DNA of 64,000 nucleotides from Cristatella mucedo (taxonomy: Eukaryota; Bryozoa; Phylactolaemata; Cristatellidae): the NCBI GenBank assembly GCA_009760855.2, contig WPIO01000012.1, positions 596,501 through 660,500 on the forward strand. The letters are read 5' to 3'. Positions within the stretch are counted from its first letter, which is position 1; every line of letters starts with the position of its first letter. Below the pieces are notes generated by a model, which was given only the letters and a program-made list of their open reading frames with translations, was not told the origin of the DNA and did not search any database. Made by a program: the position numbers and the translations under genes. Positions 1,588 to 54,200 of the stretch are shown here, in pieces.

Positions 1588-4258
1588 CAAAACGAAAAAG
1601 AAAACCAAAGAACGACGCCCTGAAGCTTCGCCTAGTGCGCAAGAACTTGTCTGCCCTGATCGAGGAAGAGGTCTGTACCAGCAGTACTATCGGCCTCTGT
1701 CAGTGTATGAATAATGTCCTTGAGTGGGGGTCTGCATCGTTAGCTTAGCCTTTAAACTGCGATTGTGCAGCCGTGCTCGTACATGCGCACACACGCACTC
1801 ACATGTGCTCAGAGAGAGAGAGAGAGAGAGAGACGAACGCACACCACCCGAGCTGGTCATGTACAATGCTCCCAGCAGCCTGGGCGTTGTTTAGGCTGCT
1901 TTTAGTGCTGTACAGCAAAAATTGCCACAAATTGATGAAAGGCCTTGTTTATTCGGCATTCTAATTTTAAAATTTTGTCCTTTGATATTGTATAGTATTT
2001 TTCACTTTTTCTCTTCGTTTTTATTCTGTAGAATGGCCCTGTTCTGTTATCATAAGCTTGCTTTAAGCTTTGGTTCTTTTTTTAGGCTGTAGCTTAGAAT
2101 GGGATTGCTACTGCCTTTAGTCTGGCCGAGTATTTGCAGCCAGTCGCAGCGCCAATGCGAAACTTGCTGCCTACAGCGATGTCTAGCAGGTGCACTAGCA
2201 TTGACCGTATGTACGTTGGTGTGCACATGACCTGGCCGGATCGCCTGCATTGGCCCGGGCCCATTTTGTTTTCTCTAATTCAGATGATGCTACTTTGAGA
2301 AGGAAACTGGTGTGTGAGATTTCTTGCTGACTTCCTTTTATGGGCTGCTTGCCAACACCGTGATTTATGCTTGCCGTTTCCTGCCGTTCGCTGGCCCATC
2401 TGTGTGTGTCTCAATGAAATGCCAGCAAAGTATGTAATTAGCAAAGCCTAAAGGTCTGCTGCATGCAGCATAGTGTGTACTGCTTGCACTGCCTGATCTT
2501 GCAAGATTTATTTGTGTAAGGAAAGCTGTGACCTGTCATATTCAGAGACTTGGCCAACTTCGGTTATTGTATTTTTCTGCTGTAGCAACTATTGAATATC
2601 AGTGGGCCGGCATACACGACGGCCGCTGTGCCTCCTTCGAAATACCCGGTCAGGCACTTCTGTGCCGTATGTGGATATCCTTTGCTGCTCATTGTTAGTG
2701 GATGCTGTGATCGCACCTATGTGGGCAGGCAGTGCCACTACCTGCAGTGCCAGCAGGCTGCTTTGATTTGCCTGGGTACCTCCCTGTCTCTTGCATACAG
2801 CAAAAACAATGTCCCTTTGTTTTGCTTACCATTAACGTGCAGTGAATGCCAAGTGCGAGATGAGCTCCTCATTCCCTTCTGCCTCGGTGGCCCAACCGAG
2901 CTGCTCCTAGCGATTTCCAGACGTTGCGCCTGCACTGGCCGGGTGCAAGATCCCATCCCCAGACAGCGTTCAATTGTCTCATCACGTGCAAAGTGATCTT
3001 GCCATCTTGCCGTGTGCTAACCGCCGGCAGCGTAGCCCAGAGGTAAGATGCTTGCCTTAAAAGACCAGTGTCGTGGGCTCGAGCCCTGCGGCATATGTTA
3101 AACGCCTGGTTAGAGATCAAGTTCTCTTAGTGTAGTGCGCAAATGGAGAATATTTATTTTATTTAGTATTATATTTATTTATCACTGTGCATGCAGCCTC
3201 TCGTACCTTCAGTTCCTGAAAGTGAGCCAGGCTCTGAATGAAGATGTTTTTTTGCAATGGCAGCAGCCTAATGAGGCTGGAATCAGACTAGCCACAGTAT
3301 TATCATGTATTTTGAGCACCGTAGCCTATTTTTGCTTGGTGACATGCCATTTGCAACGTCTCGAACCCTTTCTTTTTTGTCCAATGTTTCTTTTGCTTTT
3401 TGTTGGTGTGTGTTTTTTTTTGCTTCTCCGTCTCAGTCTTGACACCGAGACTGACAAGTCTCAAACCGAGCTCACGGCCCTGAAGCTTGTAGATACCACC
3501 ACTGCGCCCAAGATACTTGATGTACTTGGGCCAAGATAGGTTACCCTGATTAGTAGCTATGTTTCCATCTGAAATCAAGTTTGGAAGCGTGAATGTGCTT
3601 CCGAGCACTTTCATAGCCATCATGGTAGGCAACTTTATGTCACTGACCACTAGTAGTGTGTAGGCTGACCTTCACCTGCAGCGCCCTTCGCCATTGTTGC
3701 TACGGCTTCACCGTGTATCTGTCGCCAGCAACCTCGGATTAAATTAATAAAATCGAAATGCACGTCATGGCGCTCAGACAGTTTACCGAAAGCGCTACGT
3801 TATGGAGTCTTGAAACTCAGGTGGCTTCCGGTGGCAGTGGACAGGCAGCGATCCCGGTTTTTGCCCTCAGGAGGCATTCACAGGCAGCTCCTTCCTTCTT
3901 ACCCCTGAGCCCTGGGCTTTCAGCATTCCTCGCTTGCCGGTCACTCTGCTCTCGCAATCTCGTCGCTGTTGCTGAGCGCAGCGTTGCACCACTTGCCCGT
4001 GAGTGAAATGCTTCTTAACGTGCAGCTTCACCTTTCCTTCCACATACAAGTGTGTCACCTGTGGCATGCGCTACTGCTGCATCAAGTGCCTCGGCGTGCA
4101 CAGGGACACGAGGTGAGCAGTGGCTGCAGTAGCAGCAGCGCATCGAGGAAATAGCGACTGTCGGTCCTGCGCTCGGCTTGCCGGCGCCGAGCTCATGACT
4201 TTATGACCTCTGCATCTGCTGCTTGCTGCCCTGCAGGTGCATGAAGTGGACCGCATAG
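1588..4258 (+). CDS. ZNHIT1: ZNHIT1-like HIT zinc-finger protein, last four coding exons (5' end not found)
   Basis: Exons 1588-1670, 2586-2674, 4032-4112 and 4237-4258 splice in frame to the last ~90 residues of a ZNHIT1 homologue (human protein ~154 aa). The first exon gives a Lys/Arg-rich stretch then LKLRLVRKNLSALIEEE, matching the human FKLRFRKNFQALLEE segment. The second gives SGPAYTTAAVPPSKYPVRHFCAVCG. The third completes the zinc finger (FPSTYKCVTCGMRYC, then IKCLGVHRDTR). The last gives CMKWTA and TAG; human ends CLKWTV. ZNHIT1 is a nuclear subunit of the SRCAP complex that swaps H2A for H2A.Z. Acceptors are CAG/TAG and donors GT, except the intron between the second and third exons, which looks like a U12 AT-AC intron. 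The N-terminal exons are probably upstream of the window. The gene converges on the myosin light chain gene. Confidence 0.9.
1811..1832 (+). repeat. (AG)n microsatellite
   Basis: About 11 units of AG in a ZNHIT1 intron, preceded by a short CA/CT-rich stretch. Confidence 0.9.
2675..4031 (+). other. Putative AT-AC U12-type intron of ZNHIT1
   Basis: The intron starts ATATCCTTT at 2675, the consensus 5' splice site of minor-spliceosome AT-AC introns. It ends TTCTTAAC (4012-4019), a near-perfect U12 branch site, followed about 12 bases later by AC at 4030-4031. Joining GG at 2673-2674 to C at 4032 makes a Gly codon and restores the ZNHIT1 zinc finger as C-x2-C-GFPST-YKC-x2-C. The only strong GT donor nearby (GTATGT at 2668) would remove the second zinc-binding Cys. 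There is no pyrimidine tract before the acceptor, as expected for U12 introns. Confidence 0.85.
3026..3190 (+). mobile_element. SINE-2 copy with LINE-like 3' tail
   Basis: TAGCCCAGAGGTAAGATGC (A-box-like) and GTGGGCTCGAGCCCTG (B-box-like) are followed by TTAGAGATCAAGTTCTCTTA, the same sequence as the LINE 3' end, then an AT-rich tail. It sits inside the putative U12 intron of ZNHIT1. Confidence 0.7.
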
Positions 4259-4667: not shown

Positions 4668-5860
4668 TTACATCTGCGGGCCTGCCATGACCTTCTTGAT
4701 GAACTCTGCAAAGTTAAAATTAGCTGTTTGTGGCCAATCATTGTGTCTGCCCGATCTGTCGCATGCCAATTTCGCCGTGCAGCATTACCTTCATACTTGA
4801 CGTTGCCATCCAAGTCCTCCACAGTATCTGTGTACTTGAGGATGTCATCGACTGCGCTGTCCTCCAGTTTCTCACCTGGAGAAGGATGAGTGACCATTCG
4901 CAGCAGCAATAAAGTCGAATGTGCGTACCGGATGTCTATCGTTCAGCTAGCAATGCAGCCCTGACGACTATGGATCGGAAAGTCCGAAAATACGAACAGC
5001 TAGTATTGGACACCATGAACGACGAAGCGTGCACCTGCTGGCCTAGCCACGGGCTTATGCTGTCCTAAGAAAATTGACCTGCTAACTCGTTGCTGAAAGC
5101 AATAGCAAACATGAGCAACGGGTAAATAATGTTACTAAGCCAGATTATTAACGAGCAACTTCTAGTTTTTGGATGCCGTTTACCCAAGTCGGCTGCTGTC
5201 AACCATGCCCCAAAATAAATGGTTGGCTTACTCAACGCAAGAACAAGAGGCTGTGTAGAGTCGACCTATTAGTAGCTAGAATTAGACTGGATACTACTGT
5301 GTCCACGGGATTGGTTAGTGAGAGCCGGTGGTATGGCGTGACTGCTGACTACAGCCGTACGAGCAGCTCTAACCTATGATTTCACCCTTAGTGCCACGGG
5401 TAGCAATAAAAGTAGGCGATTAGCTATCTTGACTTGCCTATAGAGGTCAGCGCGTGCCTCATCTCAGCTGACGAGATGAAGCCCTGTCCTTCCCTGTCGA
5501 ACGTCTTGAAGGCTTCCATGAAGTCGGCAAAAGTGCCTAGGTCCTGGTTCTTGCTGACGTCGTGGTAAATGGGCAGCAGCTCGTCGAACTTGTACTGTTT
5601 CTCTCCTGCGAACACGCAAGCAAGTGGTGAGCAGCCATGCGGATGCCACAAATGAAAGTCCGACATATGGCGAGCAAATAAGGCAGCTCACCCATTTTCT
5701 TTGTGCCTCCGTTTTTATTGATTTGCGCCAATGTGGGGTTTAGGCCGACGCAGCGAAGGAGATCTCCAACCTTGAAGCCATCGACGAAGCCGTCGCGACC
5801 ATCCCAGAAATCAAAGAGGTCGAAAACCTCCTTCACATCTGGAATCATTGATGCAGGCAT
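4668..5860 (-). CDS. Myosin essential (alkali) light chain
   Basis: Coding exons, 5' to 3' on the minus strand: 5692-5860 (5' limit uncertain), 5438-5605, 4789-4875 and 4668-4705, ending TAA. They give about 153 aa, the usual size. The product stabilises the lever arm of muscle myosin heavy chain. EF-hand 1 reads VFDLFDFWDGRDGFVDGFKV, followed by GLNPTLAQI and GGTKKMGEK. EF-hand 3 reads TFDREGQGFISSAEMRHALT. The C-terminus is VEDLDGNVKYEEFIKKVMAG then PQM. FDFWDGRDG is typical of molluscan and related light chains. I used the Met at 5858-5860 (MPASMIPDVKEV) as a provisional start; a separate first exon upstream is likely, because the family usually has a short N-terminus before the DVKEVF-like segment. 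The intron after the second exon begins GCAAGT rather than GT. The gene is convergent with ZNHIT1. Confidence 0.93.
4910..5437. other. Light-chain intron sequence
   Basis: The intron between the exons at 5438-5605 and 4789-4875. No coding similarity or recognised repeat was seen. Confidence 0.6.
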
Positions 5861-5949
5861 GCTGCGTGATAAGCGTCAGCTTGGGCGCATGCTCAATGCT
5901 TAGCGAACTAGAGTGTGGGGCATACGGGAAGGAAAGATGGCCTCTTGCT

Positions 5950-18006: not shown

Positions 18007-21000
18007 GCACATGCAAGCATGTACAAACAAGCACATGTGCCCTTCATGCACTTAAAGAAGGCGGATCGGTCCACTTACAACTCCTTGCCATATCCAGACT
18101 GTTTAAAACCACCGAAAGGGGTGCTGGCATTGACTATGCCATAGCAGTTCACCCTAGAAAAAAATCAAGACATCCTATATCGTGTGCCTTGGCAGCAGAG
18201 TATTAGAGCGTCGGTAGTTGATCGAAAGCGTGTAAAGTGTGTAGCAATTCCGAGCATGAAATCAGCATGAAGATATGAGGAGGCCGCTGGCCTGCCTCCC
18301 AGCTTGACACTCACCAAACTGAGCCACTTTTGACGCTGTTAGCAATGGACAGCGCCTTGTTGATATCCTTGCTGAAAACGCCGGAGGCGAGGCCGTACGT
18401 GGTGGCGTTTGCACGGTTGATCACGTCGTCGATAGTGCTGAACCTAATGATTGGCTGTACCGGGCCGAATATCTAGAGCGAGGAAAAGAAAGCGAGCCCA
18501 TGCGCTGCTGCAGAACCAAAGGCTGCCGGCTGCTTGAAGTGAGCTGCTGAAAGGGCTGCCGAACAACTACTGATCGGCTACTGGATCAGAGGAGCAGTTC
18601 GACGGCTGCGCAGAGCAGGGCCGGGCAACCGAGGAAATGCACTGCCAGTAGCGATGGGAGCTAGTCGCTACGGCTGCGATTGGGGAAAGGAGCAGGCTCC
18701 GAGAGATGCCACCGAATGCAGAGATTGTGAAGGCTGAGCGTGGACGATGCCAGACGTGGCGAGTCTGTCTTTGGTTCGGCAGCCGAATCTGACCTCCTCG
18801 CGAGCGATCTTCATGTCATCGCTAACTTCGGAGAACACGGTCGGCTGAACAAAGAAGCCTTTGCTGCTGCCTGCCGGCGCTCCACCGAACTCCAGCTTGG
18901 CTCCCTGCTGCTTGCCGCTCTCGATGTAGCTCAGCACCTTCTGGAACTGCTCGCTGTCAACCTGGCAGGCAGACAGAGTCACTTCAAGCGATCGCACATG
19001 CATGGAATCGTTTGGCACCAGCGCAACTAGTAACGATACCCGATAAAGTTCAAAATGACTGCTACGAACAAAGGAACGCAAGAGTCAGACCAGTGAACTA
19101 TTAGGATCACAAAACCTAAAGGACAAGAGTATGACTGCTTACCTTATCAGCCTGTCTAGATTCAACAGCAGTTAAATTTCCAACATGCTTGTAAAGTAGT
19201 GTCCCTCTATCTGAATATGCCATATTTGGCCATTCTTAATATGCCTAAACCTATAATCATTAATCAGTTACCCAGAAAGACACATGTAAGGAAATATAAG
19301 ATGGCAAGCAAACCGGAAGCATGCAAATTAATGTCCACTTCCAGATACTGTTTGTCTTGGATACTTAGTGTAATCGATTCAACCGATAATGACCGTCATA
19401 TCAGAGAAGTAGCCAGGTTAAAGCCAAAAACTGACCAGACCGAACCAGACCTGGATCTTCTTAGTGGCAGCAATCAGCAAATTTTCTTAAATTGAATTAT
19501 GACAAAACCAACTTACTAGTTATGGGTAAACCAAGCGTGATTCGGAAATTGAAAAGACTGACGCTCAGAATCGGTTCTGCCAGCACATCTCCTGTTGAAT
19601 CTGCTCGAAATCTAGGTGCCATGTTCCAAAGTGACCTTTAATTGGACTACCACATCAGCTCCACAGACAAGTCTGCCTACTTTCAGCTGCATACAATTGC
19701 TAAAATTCGGCTTGTTTAGACAGTGATACCACATCTAAATTGGTCCATGCATTTGTGACATCCCGCCTTCCGTTCATTCATTGTCTCCAGCCTACCTATA
19801 AGATCTACTCCCCCCACCAGGCTAAGCATCGTACCACCCGCTTTTCGGAATCTAACTGTTTACCTATACCTTGTACAAACCTCAATCCTTTCGAGACCGA
19901 GCCTTTAGTTCGTATGCTCCCAAAGCCTGGAACTCACTTCCAACCCGCGTTACCTAACATCTCCTGACTTGTCCAAATTTAAGAAGAAACTAAAAACACA
20001 TCTATTTATGACAGCATTTAGTGGGTCGGTGTGATTCGTCCTTTATGTGCTTGCTTATGTGTGCTGACACTGTTGCATGCTGCCACTAACCATACTTGCA
20101 TACTGACCCTGTGCATGTCACCCCTAATCATAGTATTCTTGTTGTGTGTTGAGCATGCTACCACTAACCATTCGATCGTGCTTCCTTTGCAGCAATTGTA
20201 AAGCACCTAGAAAGAGATTGAGTTCTCTTAGGGTTCTTTATCAAGTGTACTATTAATATTATTATTATTATATATTTCTGAAGTATGTTGGTCAGAAAAG
20301 CAGCCTGACAAACACTTTCGGGTCGGTCCAGGGGTGAGCCAGCATCCGTTGGCTCTGCTTCCCTACACATATGCACCACACTATATTGGGGATGGACATA
20401 AACAATCTGCTAAAGATTCTCCCGAAAAAAAATTCCGACATGATGACTTGAAGGCGCACCCACTGACTGCTGCAGAAAAGAGCTATTTATAGGATTTTCA
20501 AACTCCGACAATGAACTTCTTCTCCGGCCAAACAAATTAATATGAAGGCATAAAAGTATTCTCACGGAAGGCTTGCAAATAAAAAGTGCAGACTTAGGCA
20601 CGCATTTAACTTTAGAGTAAAGCAGCTTGCTCATTTGCTGACAAGTCATGTCTTTGGCAATGGCAAAGGTATAAACACCAAGTCTTTGTGCATTTTTAGC
20701 TGTAGGAAAGACAAAGTTTTAAACAAAGCCAGATCGGCTGTCAATAAACCGCAATCATATCAGTCAAAGTGGAATAGCTGCCGCTAGTAGTTAGTGCAGT
20801 GAATGTGGGTACTAGAAATGCAATGAAATATGCGGTTACTACGGATTTCGGGTATTTAAACATGGCTCCTCTGAGGACTAACAAATGCGACACGTTTTAG
20901 CATTTTGCTCCATAGGAGCTCTCTTATGTCTGCAAAGTCGCTGTGACATGAGGGGAGGGCTTCCCTAACGACAGAAAGCCGGCTTCGTCCAGCTCATTTT

Positions 21001-24000: not shown

Positions 24001-27000
24001 ATGGATCCCGGTGCACTCTCGTGACTGATCACGTATGCAACATCATAAGATGTTGTACACACACTGCTCAGGCCGAACACATTAAGCTCCAATTGCTTCA
24101 CTGCAAGACAACGTTGGGTACTATTTGCAGCCACAGCAGGCCCAAATTGGACAGGAAAACCGCAGGCCGAATGCTTGTAAACTTGTAAAGGTAAAAAAAA
24201 GCAAACGACAAAGATGCACAGCAAAACTGGTAAGACGACTCGCCTATGGAGGAGCCATGAGGATCCAGACGGGTTCTGTCATGAGAAATTGCCAAGGAAG
24301 TAAAAAAAAAAATCCTAGCTGCTTAAACAGCCTCCTTTTGTATAGCGACAGAAGAGCCTTTACGGCTATCACCACCACTTGCAGTGGCGATAAAGGATCG
24401 CCCACCACAGGAATCGAACCCACGACCTCGGGACCGAGGTCATGAAAGCAACTGCCTAAATGCTTACCTCATACGTTTGAGGCTAGGGTTCAGTATCCGA
24501 AGCCGAAAAATAAAAATTTTGTCCATAGCGAATGCACTCGCGATTCTGTTATAAAGCACTATGAACCCGGTAGCCGGCTCAGCCGTATTTACAATTTAAG
24601 TTTGACTTCCTTTCTTATTCGATGCTTTCTCTTTTCATGAGAAAAGATGTGGGTGCCAACTGAAGCCCTGTATACATTGCAATAGATACTGCCAAAACGC
24701 ATCACAGAAGCCAGCTGCAGCAGACTGCTTTAGGTGAGCCGTGATGGCACACTAGGTAAGGCGGTTGCTTTCACGACCTCGGTCCCGAGGTCGTGGGTTC
24801 GATTCCTGTGGTGGGCGATTCTTTATCGCCACTGCAAGTGGTGGTAATAGCCGTAAAGGCTCTTCTGTCGCTATACAAAAGGAGGCTGTTTAATCAGCTA
24901 GGATTTTTTGTGTAGTGTGATGGGCCACGACTATGTCTGTAGTCTGGAAAGCACAATGACACAGCTTTGAGCTACAGCTCTCAAGTCACCCTCTCCACAT
25001 TGACACACAACACAGACGACAGCGACAGGTGAAAGCTCGGGCACTGACCTTGCTGGGAGAGCACTGTGTCAGTGAGTCAGAGTGTAGATAGGGTCTGTCG
25101 GACTACTTATAATTCATTCGTATAGCGCCCTAAGAGAACTTAGTCTCTCTTCTGATCATCCGAGGAACCACTTAAGTACTGGGTACCTCGGCTCTGTGCT
25201 CGGTCTGCCTCTTTTCACAATTTATACTCTCCCTCTTGCTTATATAATCGCCAAGCACAATCTAGGCTGTCACTTCTACACAGATCTCACTCAGTTTTAC
25301 CTTTGTTTTGATCTCTTCCAGCCCTCGAGCACGTCGAATTCTCTACACACCTTTGCTGCATGTATTCATGATATTTGCACACGGATGGCAGCAAACTTTC
25401 TTAAATTGAATGACCACAAAATCAACCTATTAGTTATGGGTAAAACCAAGTTTGATTCAGAAATTGGAAAACCAAATGTTCAAAATCGATTCCACCAGAA
25501 TATCTCCTGTTCAATCTGCATGCAACCTAAGTGTCCTGCCTCAAAGCAAATATATGACCACATCAGCTCCACAGTCAAGTCAGCCAACTTTCAGCTACAA
25601 ACACTACCGAAATTCGGGCTTGCTTAGACAGTGATAATACATCTAAATTGGTCCATTCATTTGTGACATCCCGTCTCGACTTCTGTGACTCGCTGCTTCT
25701 GGTCTCCCGGCATGTGCAATCAAGCGCTTACAGTTGGTGCAAAACTCAGCAGCTAGGCTCCTCTGTCGTGAGCGGTTCGGTTGCCACATCACACTACTTC
25801 ACGTTGACCTGCATTGACTTCCAATCAAGCAGCGTATCGACTTCAAGGTTCTGTCACCTAATTTTTGGTCCCTTCATTCTTTGGCTCCAGTTTACCTATC
25901 AGAACTACTCCCCATCAGGTAAAGAATTGCACAACTCGTTGTTCTGACTCGAATAGCTTAGCCATACCTCGTACGAACCTCAGAACCGTTGGAGACCGTG
26001 CCTTTAATTCCTATGCTCCCAAAGCTTGAAGCTCACTACCGAGGCACGTCATAATGTTTCCTGACATGGTGAAATTTAGAAAAGCTTAAAATGCACCTCT
26101 TTATTACAGCATTTGGTGGGTCTTTGTGATACGTCCTTGGTGTGCATGTACCTGCTTACACTGTGCCTGCTGCTTGTTGATGTTACAACCAACCATTTGG
26201 TAATGTTTTGTATGCAGCATCAGTAAAGTGCCTAGAAAGAGATTCAGTTCTCTGACGGTGCTATACAAATGTATTATTATTACTATTATTATTATTATTA
26301 TTATTCAGGCACTTCACATACGCCACAGGGCTCGAGCCTAGAACCTCGGACAGCCCTTGGTCAGGTCGAACACATTAACCACTGGGCCAAACCAGCAGGG
26401 CAATTCACTCTCACTCCAAACGCCTGCCCCTGAAATGCTACAAGCTTTCAAGGCTGGACCCGTGATGCAAAGCGAATTCAGTGTCACCAAATCTTCTCCC
26501 AATGCTAAATAAATACGTGCAACAGTGCTGTCGATGGAATTGTTTTGTTGCCCCCTGGTGAGACCCTTTATTGCCGGCCGCCAGGGGGCTGATGGCTGCT
26601 CGGGCTCGTCTGCCGGTAGATAAATGAGACTATCGAATCAGCCAACCTTTACTTTGTGCAGATACATCGGGTTCAGCAGCGCTAATAGCAGCAGAGGGCG
26701 AGGCACAGCGAGTGAGAGCTGAGCTGCACCGAGTACTTACGATCGGCATCGGCAAAAACGACGACCGGGCTCTTGCCTCCGAGCTCCATCGTGACTCGCT
26801 TCAGATTAGACTTGGCAGCGGCAATGGCCACAATTTGGCCGACCTGCAAGTGTGCATAAAAATCTCTGCCAGGCTGCTTCGACTTGAAACAAAGACGCAC
26901 GGCGAGGCAGCACGAGGCTTCCGGTGTGCCAAGCAGGAGGCCAGCGGTGGCGGCAGCGAGAGAGCACCTCGGTCGAGCCGGTGAAGGCAACCTTGTCCAC

Positions 27001-30000: not shown

Positions 30001-33000
30001 GGACGACAATGTCCAGAAGCAATAAAAAAGACTGCCAGCACAGCACAGTGACTTCTCGGCTAGGCAGGCAGGTGGCAGTTTCAATAGCAGTGTTGCTATG
30101 AAGGGGGACTGTCAAACATGAGAACAAATGCAGAAAACTGCCACAAAGCATTGCCTATATCAGCCTTAAGAGTTCCTTGATTCCATTCGGTATACATAAT
30201 GCAGCCAGCAATCATTTCAGCAAAAAATATATGATAAGAGCCTAGACGAAGGTATCTCTGGCAGACTGTTATCCTAAGCATGACTACACCGCCATCTACC
30301 ATGTATATATACAGGGGCACACAAATCTGGAAAAACAGTAAGAACTGATATCGACTTTAGGTCTCACAAATGATATCGTGCAAGTCATATTCCAGATGAC
30401 TGCAAGACAATGGCTTAGCATACAGTGCTAGCAACACAAGCATAGCCAATTAGATAATGTGCAATGACAATACCAGCATAGCGACTAAAGAAAACAGTTA
30501 ATACATCACATAAGGCATCACAGCAGGGAGTGGGCTTGAGCTACTCACAGGTATGATCTGGCCACATACACCAATAGGCTCTAGCCTTGTATAGCAAAAA
30601 TTCGGACCATCTGAAACGAAGGAGAACAGGCTCCTAGGTCGTAACCTGAAAACTATGCGCAGTGGGGATGCAGGTTCACGTGCTCCTTAAATATGGCAAA
30701 TAAAACTAGCAGCAGACTAGGCATTCAGCAGAAGATTGCTCATAACCCGAGAGAACGTGCCGGCAATAAATCGGTAAATTAAGCAGTGCAAATGATTTTA
30801 GATGGACGTCAAGCTAACGTGCTTGTGACAGCAAACGCGACCCCAGTCCAATAAGATAGCATCAACCCGAGTGAAGATTCTATCCGAAGTGGACATGTAA
30901 TCACTGGGACCGGTAAAAGGCAAGCTACAGGGGTAATAGATATCGATACCGACCTCGCTGCTTCTCGAGCTTGGCCCCCAGCCTCTTCGTTGCTTGCTTT
31001 GTCAGCTACACAGCTTAGCAGCTTGATAGGTACATATGTCTAACGTCAGGTGGGCCACTGCTCAATAGCAAATATGACTTTGAAAGCTTCAAATCATTCA
31101 CACAAGAGAAGCATGGCCAGAAAAAGCGACAGAATAGACAAAGAGAGGATATTGGTGGAGCCAAGGTCAATTAAAAAAAGGCAGCGTGCCATTAACATTG
31201 ACATTATTATTGCCCACACAAAAGAAAATAAGAGGAATTTAATGTAATGTAAAGTATCTCCACCTGCAACTCCTCCACAAAGCCACAAAGACTAAGTGCT
31301 ATGTATGAGAGTTTTCTAAAGCACAATCAAAGCCTAAGTGGCTCTCGATACGTATTCAGTAGCCAACAGACTTCATCTCACAAAACAAAGAGAAAGTGAG
31401 ACGCATAGGAATTGTCCTGAAAGCTTTAGTCCAGAGGATAGATCCCATGCATAAATGTATTAAGGCTGTAACCACTGATATAACTGGTCTTAAAAGTGAT
31501 CTTCTTTCCCTTAGAGCTAAGATATCACTAGGGGTCTTACAGTGATTAATTCATCCAACTCACAATTTTTTTTTTAATAACATCAGCCTACCTACCTCAC
31601 ACACTATTCACCAAGGCATAATCTGAGTGTGCTAATGTTCTGCCTGTGCAGCAAGCTGGATCCTACAGCTAGCTGCACACGATCGCTACCTCCATGCCAC
31701 ATTGCCACCCAGTGTCATCCTATTGCTACAAGACTGCTCAGGCTGTCATCTCTGGTGTTAACTTCGAGTAACATGATACAAGAAGTAAAGTAAAACATTA
31801 TGATGATAAAGATAAATACTAATAATTACAAACGTAGTGGCAACCATGGAAATAATACTGATTCGATTGCCGAGCTGCTTTGTGCAATCATTTTCCTTTT
31901 CAAACTATCCCGGAGCAGCAGCACATCCTTTCTTAACTACGGCCATCTCAAATGCACTGGTTTTTCTCACAGCTATCTCACTTGCCCACTATTCCCACTT
32001 ACTATGCACAGCAACCTGGAGTGGACCGACAAAAGCACACGTAGACGTTAGCCAGTTTGTGCTCACCCATGGGTATTGTCTTTCCGTGCAGCTTGTCACA
32101 CCAGCCAGCGTAGTAACGCATCACCGAAATGGCGTGCCGAATCTCATTAGAAGCATTCGTGAACGGCTTGCCATTGTCGAGAGTCTCCAAACTCTACAAA
32201 GAAATACAGATGAAAGAGACATCAGAAGGGCAAGACAGGACAGACGACTTGCAGCAGGTTTTTGCTGCCGGCAGACAATCACTGCAAAGGTAAAATTTAA
32301 AAAGAAAAAAGAGCCCAGCCACAACTTGCTCACCACGTAGGCAGTGGCTTTCTTGGCCCGACTAGCAGCAAGCATGCAGCCGCCGGTTGCATGGTTAAAG
32401 GCAACTCATAATGGCTACACGGACCCACAAGCTAGGTACAAAGCGCTATGACGAAGCCGTTCTCATTGAGCCTGCCGAATGGTGCCTCGCCCAGCATGTT
32501 CGAAGCTAGCATACACGCGAGGCTCGGAGACTTTTTGTGTCCAGCCACCAGGATGTATATTAGCATGTGCCACACGGTGTGCATCCACTACAGCTCAGCT
32601 CCCACTCGAACCGACCGACAGGTCAACGCCTGGGTCGCCTACCCCCCCCCCCGAGGAGGGGCAGGGGACAGCTCAGGTCAGCACAGCGCAGGCCAAGAAG
32701 CCAGCCGTCGGCCACTCACCGCCAGATAGTCGATGTCGCGCTCCATCAGGTTGGTCAGCTGCACGATGAGCGCAGCTCGAGCACTCGGATCGAGCAGGCG
32801 CCACGGCGATCCCAGCTTGAATGCAGCCCTCGCGGCTGCCACTGCTTTGTCGACATCAGCCTGAGGCGAGAGCACGGGCGGCGGCTCGCGGCGGGTCAGG
32901 CGAACACGAGCGGATTGCAGGCGCATGATTGCTGCCGCCACATCACTAACGCCACCAACGCCATGCTGCTTTCAACGAGAGCGGGCATGGAGCCAACGAC

Positions 33001-36000
33001 GGCAAGACACACTCTCACCTTGTCGCCTTCCTGCACCAGCGCTATCGTCTCCGCGGTCGCCGGATTCACGGTAGGAAACGTCTTGCCACTCTCAGAATCC
33101 ACAAACTCGTTGTTGATGAACAGCTGCAAAGACGGGATCGTCGAAATGTACGCATTGCATGACCCTCCGAGCAGCGCCCGGCATAACGCGGAGGGATGAG
33201 AGGATGCAAAGTCAACCTCGTGGCAGTGACCGCAAGGCGTGGCAGTGACCACATGACCGCACTGTCCCGGAGGTTGAACCGTGGTTGCTGTCCTTCATTG
33301 GGGACTCTCGGCTCCCGGGTTCGGATACTGGAGGCAGTAGGATCTTCACTGATCGATCACTTTTCATCACAACCCGGAAGTGTGCATGGCTGCCATGGTG
33401 CCATGGTGTGCTAAGAAAGCCTGGAACTCGCTACCGACTGATATCATATCTCGTGACTTGACGACATTTAAAACGAAGCTAAACATTCACGTGCTTCCTA
33501 ACAACAGTTTTTCTGTCGACGTGAATTGCATTTACGTCCTGGTGCATGCTGAAATTGCTTGCATTATCATCCCCACCCAGCTGACAAGCTGTTACTCTGC
33601 CTAACCAGCTGGGCTCAGCTGCAGGCCCACGCATAAGGAGTGGGTGGACAGCATGGATGCTGGGTACGTGGTTTGAAAGGGGGGGGCCTGAACATGATCG
33701 CAGCTTCTCTTTTGCGAGCAGCATACACAGCTGGGCCACGAACTGCAACTGCAGCCCTAGGCAACTAGTGAGCAGAATGCATCTCCGTCGCCTGGATGAG
33801 TGAGCGAGGCTGTCCTTTACAGTAGCAGCCATTTGCCACAGGTGCAGCTATTCTCGGTTGTGCGTACATTCAGCACACGATGCAGCGAATGTCGCACGAC
33901 GACAGGTAAGCAAGCCTCCTCCCTGATCACTGAGACACTCTGAAGCCGTTAGCAATAATGCCGAGCAACCCGGGGCCTTCGGCAATGGCCGGACCCGGAC
34001 CGGCAATGACTCGTTGATGGTGAAGAGTGGCAAAGACAGGGTCGTCGCAATGCACGCATTGCGCGTGAGAGTAAGGAGGCCGTCAAAGCCAAACTCGGTA
34101 GCAACACCACCGATCAACGGCTGACCAACCTGCAGATCAACGGCTGACTGCGAGCAGCGTTTGTTATGGGGGACACCAGCCAGTGAGCTAAGGAATCTGT
34201 CATGTGTCTCTCTTCTTTTGAGGCTTGGTGCATCATACTTATGATAGCCGTATCAAATAATGCAGTACACTGATGAGAGTGTGTGTCGGGGAAGTAAATA
34301 TTGGGCTTCCCTTTTCGATGGCTGAGCTTCCAAGTTGTGCCAACATCATGCTCACTTCTCGTGGTGTGCATTACATCTCTGTGTGCTTCGTGTGCTGCTC
34401 GAGGCAGGCTGATTGGTGAGGTTACTATTTTACTTGATGCTGGTTGAGACATGGTTATTGTTCGGGTCCAAGCTTTGGAGTAGCCCAAACACTGTCGTAT
34501 TTTGTGGAAAGCCATTGTCAACTAATGTACCATCGCCTGCAGAACTTTGCCTATTGGTCAGTTCTGTTTCAGGGTAGAGCTGTGCATAAATTTTGGTGGC
34601 GCCTACCCCCTATATCCGATTTGATTTACGTGTGAGAGAGAATCTCATGCAGGCTGATAAACTGATGGTCACCACTCCTTCGAGCCGGACATAAATAAGC
34701 CATGATGACACGATCATCATATATAGTAGCTCGTGCTCTCCCATCCGTTTAAGCTCAGGGCTGAGCTTCTGCTTGTCCTATACCTGGAAGGGATGAAAGT
34801 ATGTCGTCGACTGTAGGGCGACATAATACTGAATTCAGCCAAGATTGGCTGGGGTTTCTAAATTGCCTCCCGTCAGAAGCTGAGCATGAACTTCTGTCAG
34901 CTCTAGCAAGACATTTTGAAATCAATCGTGGCTTTAAATTTACTCCGACGTTTCCATGTCTGGATAGGCTGTCTGCTTCAGAGTTGATTTGGAAGACAGG
35001 AGGCTTCGGAGTCTTTGCTGGATGTCAAACATCGGCACAAACGGCCTTGACCTTGTTGTCAACTGAGTTGAATTATAGGCTGACCACCCCTAAGGATTAA
35101 ATTGAGTACATACAATAAAACGCACTAGTATTTGGACGGCTGGGGCAGCAGTCGTGACGACTACCTACTTGCCCACATTTTGAATTACTTTGCAAGTTCT
35201 TATGTTGACCCACGAGGCCTGCCATGGCCTGCCTCCTTCACACCTAGCTGAACTGCTGTACGAGTTTCAGCCTCCTCATGCCCTCGGGTCCTCTATGGGC
35301 AATAAATTTCTGTTCCTTTGCTTTTAGACTGTTGGCGACAGAAGCTTTTTGCTCTGCAGGCAGACTGTGGAACTCACTTCCACAATTCCTATATAACGAC
35401 ATCTACTGTCCTGCTTTCGGCTGTGGCAGGATCAGGCTGCTGAGGCGTTATGCACTCACATCCCGGTCTGGCTAGTGCAGGGCAACATGATGGCGATGCC
35501 ACACTCACAAATCACAACTCCGGTCCAGTGGGGAGCTTAGGAAAGCTGCTAATCGAGCAAATGTAATCTATCCAAATACTTTTACAATTTAATACATATA
35601 TAAACCTATTAATGATTAGTTTTTTAGTCCGTAAGTCTAATACTTAGTTAGGCCGTGGTCCGTCACTGACGTCACATTTACATAGAGTCCGTGTGCAATA
35701 AAGGACTGTAAATATTGTAAAGGCTACGGGCTTATAAAGGGCTATGAACTTAAAGAGGGTTTTTCGAAGGGTGGTGTGGTTTTCCAACAGTTTGCCCTCG
35801 CTGCACTACGACCCCCTTTGCAGTTTTAGCGGACCCTTTCTTACTCCTTTCACATCGCTGACCATGCGGAAACGAATGCTTACGCATTAATTAATCAGCG
35901 AAGTTCGTACAAAGTATTTGCATTGCAGTAAATAGAATGCTATTTCACATAAACTATTTCTTTTCTTGTCGCTCGACACCAGCAATGCTGCTTCTTCGCC

Positions 36001-42927: not shown

Positions 42928-44275
42928 GATAAATCAGATCTCTTTCTAGGTACTTTACATATGCTGCATATGAACGAAGCATTAATCAAATGGTTAGTCA
43001 TAACGTGCACAGTGTCGACAAGCATAACGTGATCAGGGGGTAACTTGCAGTCAATATATAAATATGGTTAGTGGTAGCATGCACTTTGCCAGCACCCATA
43101 AGCACAAAAATGACAAAGGAAGAGGTCATGTCACGTAGACCCAGCAAATGCATTGAGACAAAGGTGCCTTTCTAGCTTCTTTTTTAAATGTCTTCGGGGA
43201 TATAGTGACGTCAATCGATAGTAAGTTCCAGGCTTTGGGAACAAACGAAATAAAGGCATGGTCTCTGTGAAGGATTTCAGGTTCGTTCGAGGCTTAGCTA
43301 AATTATTTTAGTCAGAAAGCAGGCAGTACACTGCCAAACCTTGTGGTGTAGTATATGATAGGTACGCTGGAGCTAGAGAATGAAGGGACCTGAAAGTGGG
43401 TGACTGAACCTTCAAATCTATAAGCTGCTTGATTGGGAGCCAGTGCAGGTCGGCGAGAAATGGTGTGAATAGGCATCTATAACACTCACGAGCGACAAGC
43501 CTAGTTGCAGAGTTAGACACCAACTGTAAGTGCCTGGTTGCATAGGCCGGGAGACCAGAAAGCAGTGAGTTACAGAAGTCGAGACGGGATTTCACAAATA
43601 CATGGATCAATTTGGATGAGGTATCCCTGTCTAAGCAGGCCCGAATCTTAGCAATGGTGCATACCTGAAAGTAGGCAGACTTGACTGTGGAGCTGATGTG
43701 GTCGTCTTATGAAAGGTCACTTTGGAACAGGACACCTAGATTTCGTGCAGATGCTACTGAAGATATGCTAGCAGATCCGACTTTGAGCATCAAGCTTTCC
43801 AATCTTGTAGTCACACTTGGTTTGCCCATAACTAGTAAGTTGGTTTTATCGTCTTCCGATTTCAGAAAGGTTGATGTCATCCATGCGCTGATGCCAGCAA
43901 TACATGCGGCAAGGGAGTTAAGAGAATTTGACGTGCTGCAGGGATTAATGCATAGGTACAGCTGTGTCATCTGCATAGAAGTGAAAGCCTAGATTGTGCT
44001 TGGCAATTAAATCGGCAAAGGAGTATATATGTGAAAAGTAGTGAACTGAGCACAGAGCGCTGAGGTACCCCGTACTTCAGCGGTTCCTCAGATGATCTTT
44101 GCCCGGTCAAATCAATACTCTGTGGAGCCTCTCGCTGAGATAGGACCTGAACCATTGCAGTGCATTGCCAGTGATACCCAGGCGAGATGAGAGGTGAAGA
44201 GATGAGAGGTTTGAGAGCATAGTAACTGAAGGCACAGTCACCGAGGGTTTTTGAAGTTAGTAAGGGACACAAGCA
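42928..44275 (-). mobile_element. CR1/L2-like LINE, antisense, decayed
   Basis: The minus strand shows [30 protein letters not shown] (decayed YADD region), [37 protein letters not shown] and the 3' end GATCTGATTT-like. Several frameshifts are present. It abuts the forward scrap at 42760-42925 head to tail, suggesting one LINE inserted into another. Confidence 0.85.
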
Positions 44276-48200: not shown

Positions 48201-51200
48201 CGTTTGAATCGGTTGCCATCAGATCCCCACCAAAGAAATGAAAAAAGTGCCTCTCACAACTGTGATCTACCGACCCCATCTGTTTCTGGAATGCATCAAC
48301 AAAATATTCCTGTACGACAGGCCATGATTGATCGCTGGAGACTTTAACATTCACATTAACATGAATGTCAACAGTGCCAGGCAAGGCAGCTTCGTGTTAG
48401 GCAAGGCAGCTTCGCAGCCTGCCAAGCCGACCCCAATGGCAACAACCATCCCACTGCAAACCTGAAGTCGACCAGCCAGCACCGCTCTCGACACCACAGT
48501 GGGCTGCTGGTTCCCCATCCTGGCGTCCCACTATCTTACGCAATCACTGGCGTTCACGAGTGAGCGAGGAGGCCACGAGAGGAGAGACCACTTACAACTC
48601 TTTGCCGTATCCGGACCGTTTAAAGCCGCCGAAGGGTGTGGTGGCAGTGATCATGTCGTAGCAGTTCACCCTAGAAGCAAACCAAACGGTGTGCAAGATG
48701 GCACACACCAGCATCTAAGCACCAGCGCACTCGCGCACAACACGGCCGGTACATGCATCGACGCCGAACGTGACACCGGGCAGGCAGAAACGACTAAACC
48801 ACATGCCTCACTGCCTGCCTTTCTGCTGCCTGCCTGCCGCTCACCAAACCGAGCCACCTTTGACGCTGTGAGCAATGGCCAGAGCCTTGTTGATGTCCTT
48901 GGTGAAAACGCCAGCGGCGAGGCCGTACGTGGTGGCGTTTGCGCGGTTGACCACGTCATCAACGTTGCTAAACCTTATGATAGACTGCACCGGGCCGAAT
49001 ATCTAAATAAGAGGGGGAAAAGAAACGGCCTACTGAGGCTGCCCGATGCACGACTTGACTCCTCTATTTTCTTTTTTTTGCAAAGCTGACAGCCAGCACC
49101 AGCAGCTAACCAGTCAGCCGAACAGCAAAGAGGGCAGAGGCTTAATGCAAGGATCACCTCGCTACACTTTCTGACCGGCAGTAGGAGAGGTCGAGGAATG
49201 ACGAGTCGGGTCAATGCTGCAGCCTGCTTCGAAAGAAGCACGAGCCAAGGCTCCAAGCGACACAGTGTGTGTGTGTGTGGGGGGGGGGGCTCACGAACAG
49301 AGCGATTGAGAGAGGGACATGGGCTACTGCCATCGCCAGCAGTCTATGGCGAGGTTGCCGAATCTGACCTCCTCCTGAGCGATCTTCATGTCGTCACGAA
49401 CTTCGGAGAACACGGTCGGCTGAACAAAGAAGCCTTTACCGCTGCCTGCCGGCGCTCCGCCGAACTCCACCTTGGCTCCCTGCTGCTTGCCGCTCTCGAT
49501 GTAGCTCAGCACCCTCTGGAACTGCTCGCTGTCGACCTGGCAGGCGGACAGATGATGCTCCAGGCTGAGGCTCCAAAAGGTTGGCCCGCACGAAGAAACG
49601 CCAGAGCCCCGAGAGACTAGGCTCGCTAGCCCAGGGGTAGCGCGCGGTCCAAGGATCTCGAGAGCAATACGCGAGTGCCAGCGCAACATCTGCAAGGCAA
49701 CAGCAGCACGTGACTGCAATAACACCGCCTAGCCTAGATGCCTAGACGCTGTAGTGTGCATGCTTGCTGATGAAACTCCACTTCTCTCAAAATATCTGCG
49801 CCGGCTACTGCTTTCTTTACACGAAGGCGACCTCCTTCAACAACTGCATGGCAAGACGAATGCAAAGAGCTAGGCGGCAAACCGGAAGCATACGAACTGC
49901 GGCTGCTCTGCAGCCATGCTAATACTCAGACGAAAAATCTCGTTCATTAAGGCTTGCAACAAAAGCACGAGTAGTACTGGATCAATCTGGACTCGTGTCG
50001 AACGGGATGATCAAACGGTAAACGAGGCACGGACACCACCTTTGTTTGCAGGCAATTAGCCAGGAGCACACAAAAACCGGCCAGTTTAGAGGGCTTCTGA
50101 GAGCCGTGTCACGGGTTTCAATCGCCATTTGATTGCAACTAAGTCACACCACGGGGCTCAACGACGAGCTGGAGGTGACCACGATTCAAATTTGGAGAAC
50201 ACCTGGAACATTAACCGTGGCACTTCTTTGCACCGGCAAAGGCTTTAACCGGCCTGCTTAAGTGCATCTACAGCTAGGCAAGACACGATTCTAAGATTGT
50301 AGACATCAGTGACCCAGGTACGAACAAAAATCGTTAAACTGTAGTTTCTGATTAAGAAATAACTTGATGAACCTTCAGAAACTTGTCCATTTATCAACTC
50401 AATCAGAGCACCAGTCAAACTTCCAGAATTGAACTTGTCCCTCGCAGCCTTTTACTCACACCAGAGCTTTGGTATAGGTATTGGATTCTAATAAACAAAA
50501 ATTCGTGTTCACAAGGCAAACATAGCAGAGAAGCATGGCCGAGAAAATGGTCGTCTCACAATATTGCAGAGCAGCTGCTATTTGAAGCACTGCACTTTGA
50601 AGCAGCTGACAGGTCAGCATCGTCGCTGCAAAAGCCTGGTGCATAAAACGTGGCTTAACTACGAATGCCGGGGTGAGCAAATGCCGGGGTGAGGCTTACG
50701 GCAAGCACTACCGTCGGAGTTGCCACATGACACCACTTCTCGCCGACCTGCACTGGCTCCCAGTCAAGCAACGCATCGACTTCAAGGTTCTGTTGCTCAC
50801 TTTTAGACCCCTTCATTCTTTGGCTCCAGCCTACCTATCAGATCCACTCCCCCGCCAGGCTAAGCATCGTACCACACGCTTTTCGGAATCTAATTGTTTA
50901 CCTATACCTCGTACAAACGTCAAATCCTTTGGAGACCGTGCCTTTAGTTCGTATGCTCTCAAAGCCTGGAACTCACTCCCGGCTTGCGTCACGACATCCC
51001 CCTGACTTGACCACATTTAAAAAAAAGCTGAAAACATATCTATTTATCACAGCATTTAGTGGGTCCCTGTGATTTGTTCTTTATGTGCTTATGCGTGCTG
51101 ACACTGTGCATGCTGCCACTAACCATACTTGCATGCTGACCCTATGCATGTCACCGCTAACCATGTTATGCTTGCTGTTATTGAGCATGCTATCACTAAC

Positions 51201-54200
51201 CATTCGATCATGCTCCCTTTGCAGCGAGTGTAAAGTACCTAAAAAAGAGATGGAGTTATCTGAGGGCGCTATATCAAGTATACTATTATTATTATTATTG
51301 GATTGGCAGCACTGCGAGACCACTAGACAATATGTACCGCTCGAGAGGCTGGAACGTTGAGCAGACGCATCGCTCAGTAGCTGGCCAGTGCCTGGCTCAT
51401 GCGGCAGGGTCAGGTCCAGGAGCCTGGTGCGACTAGCAACAGCCACCGGGTTCTCACCTGAGGTCCCTGCTGTGTCTTCTCGTCGTATGGATCGCCCACG
51501 ACCCTCTGAGCCGCCATTGCACGCGAGCGGCTCACGAAGTCGTCGTAGACGTCGTCGTGCACGTAGACGCGCGAGGGGGCGCAGCAGCTCTGGCCGGCAT
51601 TGCCCATCATGGCATCGTGACACCATGATGTCGCTTCGTTCACTACAATACGGCACGTGTGATTTGGCAACACTTCCAGGAGCACGATTGTGTGTCATCC
51701 TGCGTGCACGCGTGACAAGCTCTGTCGAAAACTAAATGCACCAACGCGAAATCAGGATAGCAGCATAATAATAATAATAATAATATTGCACTTGATAAAG
51801 CGCCCTCAGAGAACTTAATCTCTTTCTAGGCGCTTTACATTTGCTGCAAAGTGATACGCAATAGAATAGTAAGTAAAATCATGCTTGAAAAACAAACAAA
51901 ATGAATAACATGGTTAGGGGTTACATGCACTGGGTCAGCATGCAAATGTGGTTAGTGGCAGCATGAATAGTGTCAGCACACATAAGCACATCGAGGACGA
52001 ATCACAAGGACCCACTAAATGCTGTCCTAAATAGGTATGTTTTTAAGTTTCTTTTAAATGTGGTCAGGTCGGGGGATGTTCTGATGCAGGTCGGGAGGGA
52101 GTTCCAGGCTGTGGGAGCATACGAGCTAAATGCACGGTCTCCAAAGGATTTAAGGTTTGTACGAGGTATTTCTAGACTGTTAGATTCCGAAAAGCGAGTG
52201 GTACGAAGCTTTGCCTGATGGGGTAGTATATCTGAAAGATAGGCTGGAGCCATAGATGAATGAAGAGACCTAAAAGTGAGCGACAAAACCTTGAAGTCAA
52301 TCCGTTGCTTGACTGGTAACCAGTGCAGGTCGGCGAGAAGTGGAGTAATGTGGCAACTGCGACGCTCACGACAGACAAGCCTAGCTGCAGAGTTTTGCAC
52401 CAGCTGCAATCGCCTGATCGCACATGCTGGTAGGCCAGTAAGCAGTGAGTTGCAGAAGTCGAGACGAGATGTCACGAATGCATGGACCAACTTGGACGTG
52501 GTATCCTTATCTAAACAAGCCCTAATTTTAGCAATGTTATGAAGCTGAAAATAGGCTGATTTGACTGTGGAGCTGATGTGGTCGTCTAACGAGAGGTCGC
52601 TTTGGAATATGACACCTAGATTTTGAGCTGATGCAACTGGAGATATGCTGGCAGAGCCAATTTTGAAAGTCAGCCTTTCCAATTTCTGAATAACACTAGG
52701 TTTGCCCATAACTAGTAAGTTAGTTTTATCATCGTTTAGTTTTAGAAAATTTGCTGCCATCCATGATCGGATGTCATCAATGCATGCAGCAAGTGAGTTG
52801 AGAGAATTTGAGATGCTCGAAGGCTGGGAGGGATCAAAGCAAAGGTACAACTGAGTGTCATCCGCATAGAAGTGAAAGCCTAGGTTGTGCTTGGCAATCA
52901 CATCAGCGAGAGGGAGAGTATAAACGGTGAAAAGGACCGGACCTAGCACAGAGCCCTGAGGTACTCCATATTTTAGAGGTACTTCAGATGATCTTTGTCC
53001 ATTCACGTCAACACTCTGGAGTCTCCCACTGAGATAGGACCTGAACCACTGCAGAGCAGTGCCAGTGATGCCCAGGCGAGATGAGAGGCGCTCTAGAAGT
53101 ACTTTGTGATCGATGGTATCAAAAGCTGCCGAAAGATCGAGCAAAACAAGAAGAGACACTCTACCCATGTCTGCATTCCTAAGTAGGTCGTTGTATACCC
53201 GAAGCAATGCTGACTCTGTGGAGTGATTAGCTCTAAAGCCAGACTGGAACTTACTAGCAAGGTGTGAGGTTTCGATATACGAGTTCAGCTGGTCTGCCAC
53301 GACCCGTTCCAGTGTCTTTGATAGGAATGGTAGAAGGGAGACTGGGCGGTAGTTGCTTAAGTTCTCTTGGTCTAGTGTAGCTTTCTTGAGAAGTGGCCTG
53401 ACTACTGCTTTTTTGAAAGGTGCTGGGACCTGACCTGAGGCTAATGACATATTAATGATGTTGGTTATGCATGGCAGCAGCAGATCAATGCAACGTAGGA
53501 GCAGGACAGTGGGAATAGGGTCCAGTGGACTTGTTGTCTTCTTTGATTGAGATACGAGCTTTAGGACTACATCACTAGTGACCTGTTTAAATGCAGACAT
53601 TGAGGCGCAGCCAGGAACCGAGGAACAGCATTCTAGTGGGAAGGTTGTCATCGCAGGGATGGATTCCCTGATTTTGTCTATCTTCTGCACAAAGAATCGA
53701 GAGAAGCGATCGGCTAGATCATCACAAGGATCATCTGGTAAGGAGCTAACCTGGGAACGGTTGAGGAGATGGTTTATTGTCGACATCAGCATTTTTGGAT
53801 TGTGCATCTGTGATTCAACAATGTTTCTATAGAAGCTAGACTTAGCCTTTGCTAGGATCGATTGGTACGACCTACAGTAGTCTTCATATGCCTGTCGATG
53901 GACAGTTAGTCCGGATCTTTTAAGTGTTCAGGCTGGACGACCTACAAGTAGTGAGGTTCAGAAGTCTAGTCTTGACGCTGTGAATGCATGGATAAGCCTG
54001 TCTGGCGTCCTTAGCTTAGCGTTTTTTTTCGACGTAACAACGGTGAAAGTTGGCAGACTTGACCGGAGCTCGTGTGCTTATTTAGTGAAAGCCTTTTTTG
54101 GCACGCAGATACTGGTCGAGCCGATTTGGAAGGTTTGGCTGTCCAGTAAAAAGCATCGCCGGCAATCTAAGCCTCTTCCCAAAAGCATCCTCTGAGTGCC

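What the first reader, a model, noticed from the sequence alone, without database searches (positions are those of the whole stretch)
2675..4031. AT-AC (U12, minor spliceosome) intron splitting the ZNHIT1 zinc finger
The donor ATATCCTTT, branch site TTCTTAAC and terminal AC about 12 bases later all match the U12 AT-AC consensus. Only this splice gives the zinc finger the right Cys spacing and the conserved Gly-Phe-Pro-Ser. The nearest GT donor would delete a zinc ligand. AT-AC introns are a tiny minority in animal genomes, and gene finders that assume GT-AG will break this gene.
Basis: partly seen in the sequence, partly recalled or inferred. Interest (0 to 1): 0.8.

Follow-up and report, generated by a model that had tools for sequence, protein, structure and literature searches.

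The report
Rare-type AT-AC intron in ZNHIT1
The ZNHIT1 gene of this animal is interrupted, inside its zinc finger, by an intron of the rare AT-AC kind removed by the minor spliceosome; this is real and easily mis-annotated, but it is an ordinary member of a well-known class of introns.

Summary
Window 2675-4031 is best read as a 1,357-base, phase-2 U12-type AT-AC intron in the gene for ZNHIT1, a SRCAP/SWR1-complex subunit. The donor is ATATCCTTT and the branch site TTCTTAAC; the branch adenosines lie 13-14 bases before the terminal AC. Splicing there gives a continuous protein aligning with human ZNHIT1 over 145 residues (E 4e-51), including CAVCGFPSxYxCVxCG. The genome also holds U11, U12 and U4atac snRNA genes above Rfam cut-offs, plus CENATAC and TXNL4B, the factors linked to AT-AN minor introns. 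U6atac was not found, but it may be masked or missed.

It is not the only splice that keeps the Cys spacing. A GT-AG pair 19 bases downstream (2694/4050, also 1,357 bases) stays in frame and gives CAVCGYPLLLICVTCG. An AT-AG ending at 4025 adds only Phe-Thr. Both fit the family worse (zf-HIT 29.1 and 38.0 bits against 41.3). Such an offset pair occurs near 28% of random position pairs.

No RNA evidence or other animal genome was available, so usage and conservation of the position are inferred or untested. New member of a known kind, of modest interest.

The parts
1588..1670 (+). ZNHIT1 coding exon (..KRKRKPKNDALKLRLVRKNLSALIEEE), followed by an ordinary GT-AG intron 1671-2585
   Evidence: tblastn to human ZNHIT1; phase-consistent join
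2586..2674 (+). ZNHIT1 coding exon with the first half of the zf-HIT finger (..HFCAVCG), ends in phase 2
2675..4031 (+). U12-type AT-AC intron, 1357 bases
   Evidence: donor, branch site and distance match; best protein of all in-frame splices
2675..2683 (+). U12-type 5' splice site ATATCCTTT; CCUUU can pair with AAAGG near the 5' end of this genome's U11 snRNA (CAAAAGGGC)
4012..4019 (+). U12-type branch site TTCTTAAC; can pair with GUAAGGAA of this genome's U12 snRNA, one G-U pair, one A bulged
4030..4031 (+). AC 3' terminus, 13-14 bases after the branch adenosines
4032..4112 (+). ZNHIT1 coding exon (FPSTYKCVTCGMRYCCIKCLGVHRDT), followed by GT-AG intron 4113-4236
4237..4258 (+). Last ZNHIT1 coding exon (RCMKWTA stop)
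4024..4025 (+). Competing in-frame AG (GTGCAG), 7-8 bases after the branch adenosines; would add Phe-Thr
2694..4050 (+). Competing in-frame GT-AG pair (ATT|GTTAGT ... ACAAG|TGT), same length, keeps Cys spacing but replaces FPSTYK by YPLLLI

Best explanation
2675-4031 is a U12-type AT-AC intron in phase 2 of the ZNHIT1 gene. Inferred mechanism: the U11/U12 di-snRNP binds donor and branch site together. U11 pairs with CCUUU, and U12 pairs with UUCUUAAC, bulging an adenosine. U6atac then replaces U11, and the AC at 4031 is the acceptor, joining Cys-Gly to Phe-Pro-Ser. The sequence elements, the coding consequence and most of the machinery are shown here; the splicing reaction itself is inferred.
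For: The donor and branch motifs sit where the protein alignment needs them. The joined protein aligns with human ZNHIT1 over 145 residues without a gap at the junction, and its zf-HIT score, 41.3 bits, is the highest of the alternatives tested. U12 at 114.9, U11 at 102 and U4atac at 81.2 bits are all above cut-off. CENATAC and TXNL4B are present; CENATAC promotes AT-AN minor introns, and TXNL4B is its strongest interactor (PMC8280824). The branch distance is near the published optimum of 11-13 nt, and AT-AG is disfavoured (PMC3584512). The three other introns reconstructed for this gene are GT-AG.
Against: No transcript data. U6atac was not found above cut-off. The branch site has one departure from TTCCTTAAC. 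A GT-AG alternative with correct Cys spacing exists.
Confidence: 0.93

Rival explanations
1. A U2-type GT-AG intron 2694-4050 is used instead, giving CAVCGYPLLLICVTCG.
For: In frame, with exactly the same intron length and preserved Cys spacing. The donor GTTAGT matches five of six intronic positions of GTRAGT, and there is a pyrimidine-rich stretch before ACAAG. zf-HIT is still above the Pfam cut-off, at 29.1 bits.
Against: It loses the conserved FPSxY and scores 12 bits lower on zf-HIT and 8 bits lower against human ZNHIT1. The donor has T at +3 and no G at -1. It would leave the FPSTY reading of 4032-4050 and the well-placed U12 signals unexplained. A pair at equal offset occurs near 28% of random position pairs.
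Confidence: 0.04
2. A U12-type AT-AG intron 2675-4025, with the AC six bases later staying in the exon, giving CGFTFPSTYKCVTCG (two extra residues), as the main isoform.
For: In frame. The AG is good in itself, and the zf-HIT score is 38.0 bits.
Against: The AG lies only 7-8 bases after the branch adenosines, against an optimum of 11-13. AT-AG combinations are disfavoured (PMC3584512). It puts a two-residue insertion into the alignment with human ZNHIT1 and scores lower (74.4 against 80.8 bits).
Confidence: 0.03

Closest known systems
U12-type (minor-spliceosome) AT-AC introns of animals and plants
   Same: A-type 5' splice site ATATCCTTT, CTTAAC-type branch site close to the 3' end, AC terminus, phase other than 0, in a gene whose other introns are GT-AG
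   Different: Nothing in kind. The host gene, ZNHIT1, was not named as a minor-intron gene in any open-access paper found; published supplementary lists and intron databases could not be consulted.
ZNHIT1 (p18Hamlet) / yeast Vps71 (Swc6), SRCAP/SWR1 subunits
   Same: Aligns with human ZNHIT1 over 145 residues including the zf-HIT finger
   Different: Position and class of introns in other animals' ZNHIT1 genes were not testable here

Membership tests
U12-type AT-AC intron | 5' splice site close to ATATCCTTT | tested here: met
   9 of 9 at 2675-2683
U12-type AT-AC intron | Branch site close to TTCCTTAAC | tested here: met
   TTCTTAAC at 4012-4019; core CTTAAC exact, one C-to-T change upstream
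U12-type AT-AC intron | Short branch-to-3'-splice-site distance (optimum 11-13 nt) | tested here: met
   13-14 bases from the adenosines to the last intron base, 12 from the final C of the motif (PMC3584512)
U12-type AT-AC intron | Terminal AC, and joined exons encode the conserved protein | tested here: met
U12-type AT-AC intron | Organism has the minor spliceosome | tested here: met
   U12, U11, U4atac above cut-off; CENATAC and TXNL4B
U12-type AT-AC intron | U6atac snRNA gene present | tested here: inconclusive
   None above cut-off; two 22.7-bit partial matches with shared flanks.
U12-type AT-AC intron | Spliced out by U12-dependent splicing in RNA | not testable with these tools
   No RNA data; no processed copy of the gene in the genome
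ZNHIT1 | zf-HIT finger and full-length similarity | tested here: met
   PF04438 41.3 bits; E 4.2e-51 to human ZNHIT1 over 145 residues

The most novel reading that the evidence does not exclude
The overlapping U12-type (2675/4031) and U2-type (2694/4050) site pairs are both used, a staggered twintron-like arrangement that makes two ZNHIT1 fingers of identical spacing but different loop sequence (FPSTYK or YPLLLI), with the choice set by minor-spliceosome activity.
Probability: 0.03. Interest if true: 0.6.

Novelty: new member of a known kind. Interest (0 to 1): 0.22.

Why it matters
A gene finder limited to GT-AG or GC-AG would mis-build ZNHIT1, most likely through the in-frame GT-AG decoy at 2694/4050, which gives a plausible but wrong zinc finger. 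The case also links an H2A.Z-loading complex subunit to the minor spliceosome in this animal. It says little that is new about the minor spliceosome itself.

Tried and rejected
A retrocopy or paralogue of ZNHIT1 that would serve as a natural cDNA: none (the weak hits at C155 and C110 have E above 0.3). U6atac by Rfam model and by three sequence patterns: none convincing. The 5' pattern hits L013 and L016 share flanks, score 22.7 bits (cut-off 33) and look like degenerate copies. The U11-48K zinc-finger family gave only a cluster of CHHC fingers on one contig and was not used as evidence. Papers linking ZNHIT1 to minor introns: none; the hits were incidental. A scan of the window for further U12 donor/branch pairs gave only loose matches with no coding context.

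Full report
Observation. As isolated motifs in 64 kb they are not remarkable: shuffles contain at least one in 36% and 40% of trials. Their placement is. The protein alignment fixes where the intron must begin and end. A Markov estimate puts the donor at that exact base at about 3e-6, and a YTTAAC core within 8-20 bases of the required end at about 0.004.

Gene. Upstream sequence from the same contig supplies one more exon, ending at C33:595587. Joined with window exons 1588-1670, 2586-2674, 4032-4112 and 4237-4258, it gives an open frame that ends in RCMKWTA-stop. It aligns with human ZNHIT1 residues 9-153 at E 4.2e-51, with no gap at the AT-AC junction: HFCAVCGFPSTYKCVTCGMRYC against PFCAVCGFPSPYTCVSCGARYC. 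The three other introns reconstructed are GT-AG. The start of the protein was not located. No second copy or processed copy was found.

Alternatives. All GT-AG, GC-AG, AT-AC, AT-AG and GT-AC pairs near the junction were enumerated; 276 stay open, and the AT-AC pair scores best against human ZNHIT1 (184, next 172). GT-AG 2694/4050 has the same length of 1,357 bases, stays in frame and gives CAVCGYPLLLICVTCG. It loses the conserved FPSxY, scores 29.1 instead of 41.3 bits on zf-HIT, and a pair at equal offset occurs by chance near 28% of random position pairs. AT-AG ending at 4025 adds Phe-Thr, scores 38.0 bits, and its AG is only 7-8 bases from the branch adenosines. A review of the minor spliceosome gives 11-13 nt as the optimum and AT-AG as disfavoured (PMC3584512).

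Machinery. Searches of the whole 572-Mb genome found one gene each for U12 (114.9 bits), U11 (102 bits) and U4atac (81.2 bits), all above the Rfam cut-offs. The U4atac gene happens to lie on the same contig, about 173 kb beyond the window. The U11 5' end (CAAAAGGGC) can pair with the donor's CCUUU, and U12 GUAAGGAA with UUCUUAAC (one G-U pair, one bulged A); this is read by eye from the sequences. CENATAC/CCDC84 and TXNL4B are present. CENATAC promotes splicing of AT-AN minor introns, and TXNL4B is its strongest interactor (PMC8280824). U6atac was not recovered.

Verdict. It is a U12-type AT-AC intron in ZNHIT1, established on sequence and homology and not on RNA. About 24% of minor introns are AT-AC (PMC8280824), and minor introns occur widely across animals (PMC10639083), so it is a new member of a known kind. 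No open-access paper found names ZNHIT1 as a minor-intron gene, but gene lists in supplements and intron databases could not be read, so the gene may already be listed there.

Noticed in passing
L003 (G000:C33:833904-834033): The genome's only detected U4atac snRNA gene lies on the same contig as this ZNHIT1 gene, about 173 kb downstream of the window.
   Followed up: partly
52002-53927 (-): Open frame of 641 codons with a reverse transcriptase domain (RVT_1, 112 bits), probably a non-LTR retrotransposon; fragments of similar sequence at 25088-25627, 43308-43706 and 50610-51005.
   Followed up: partly
18668-19084, 49324-49728, 60657-61205 (all -): Several aldehyde dehydrogenase exons (PF00171); an exon with [15 protein letters not shown] appears twice with identical translation (32896-33294 and 61130-61528), which points to tandem ALDH copies.
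   Followed up: partly
4700-5870 (-): Exons that by eye look like an EF-hand (myosin light chain or troponin C type) gene just downstream of ZNHIT1, on the opposite strand.
   Followed up: no
L013 (G000:C45:13897) and L016 (G000:C534:7717): Two copies with shared flanks that carry the U6atac 5' core AAGGAGAGAAGGTTAG but score only 22.7 bits; possible degenerate U6atac copies or alternative haplotigs.
   Followed up: partly
G000:C603:704230-837773: Cluster of six zf-U11-48K-type CHHC fingers on one contig, perhaps tandem GTSF-like genes.
   Followed up: no
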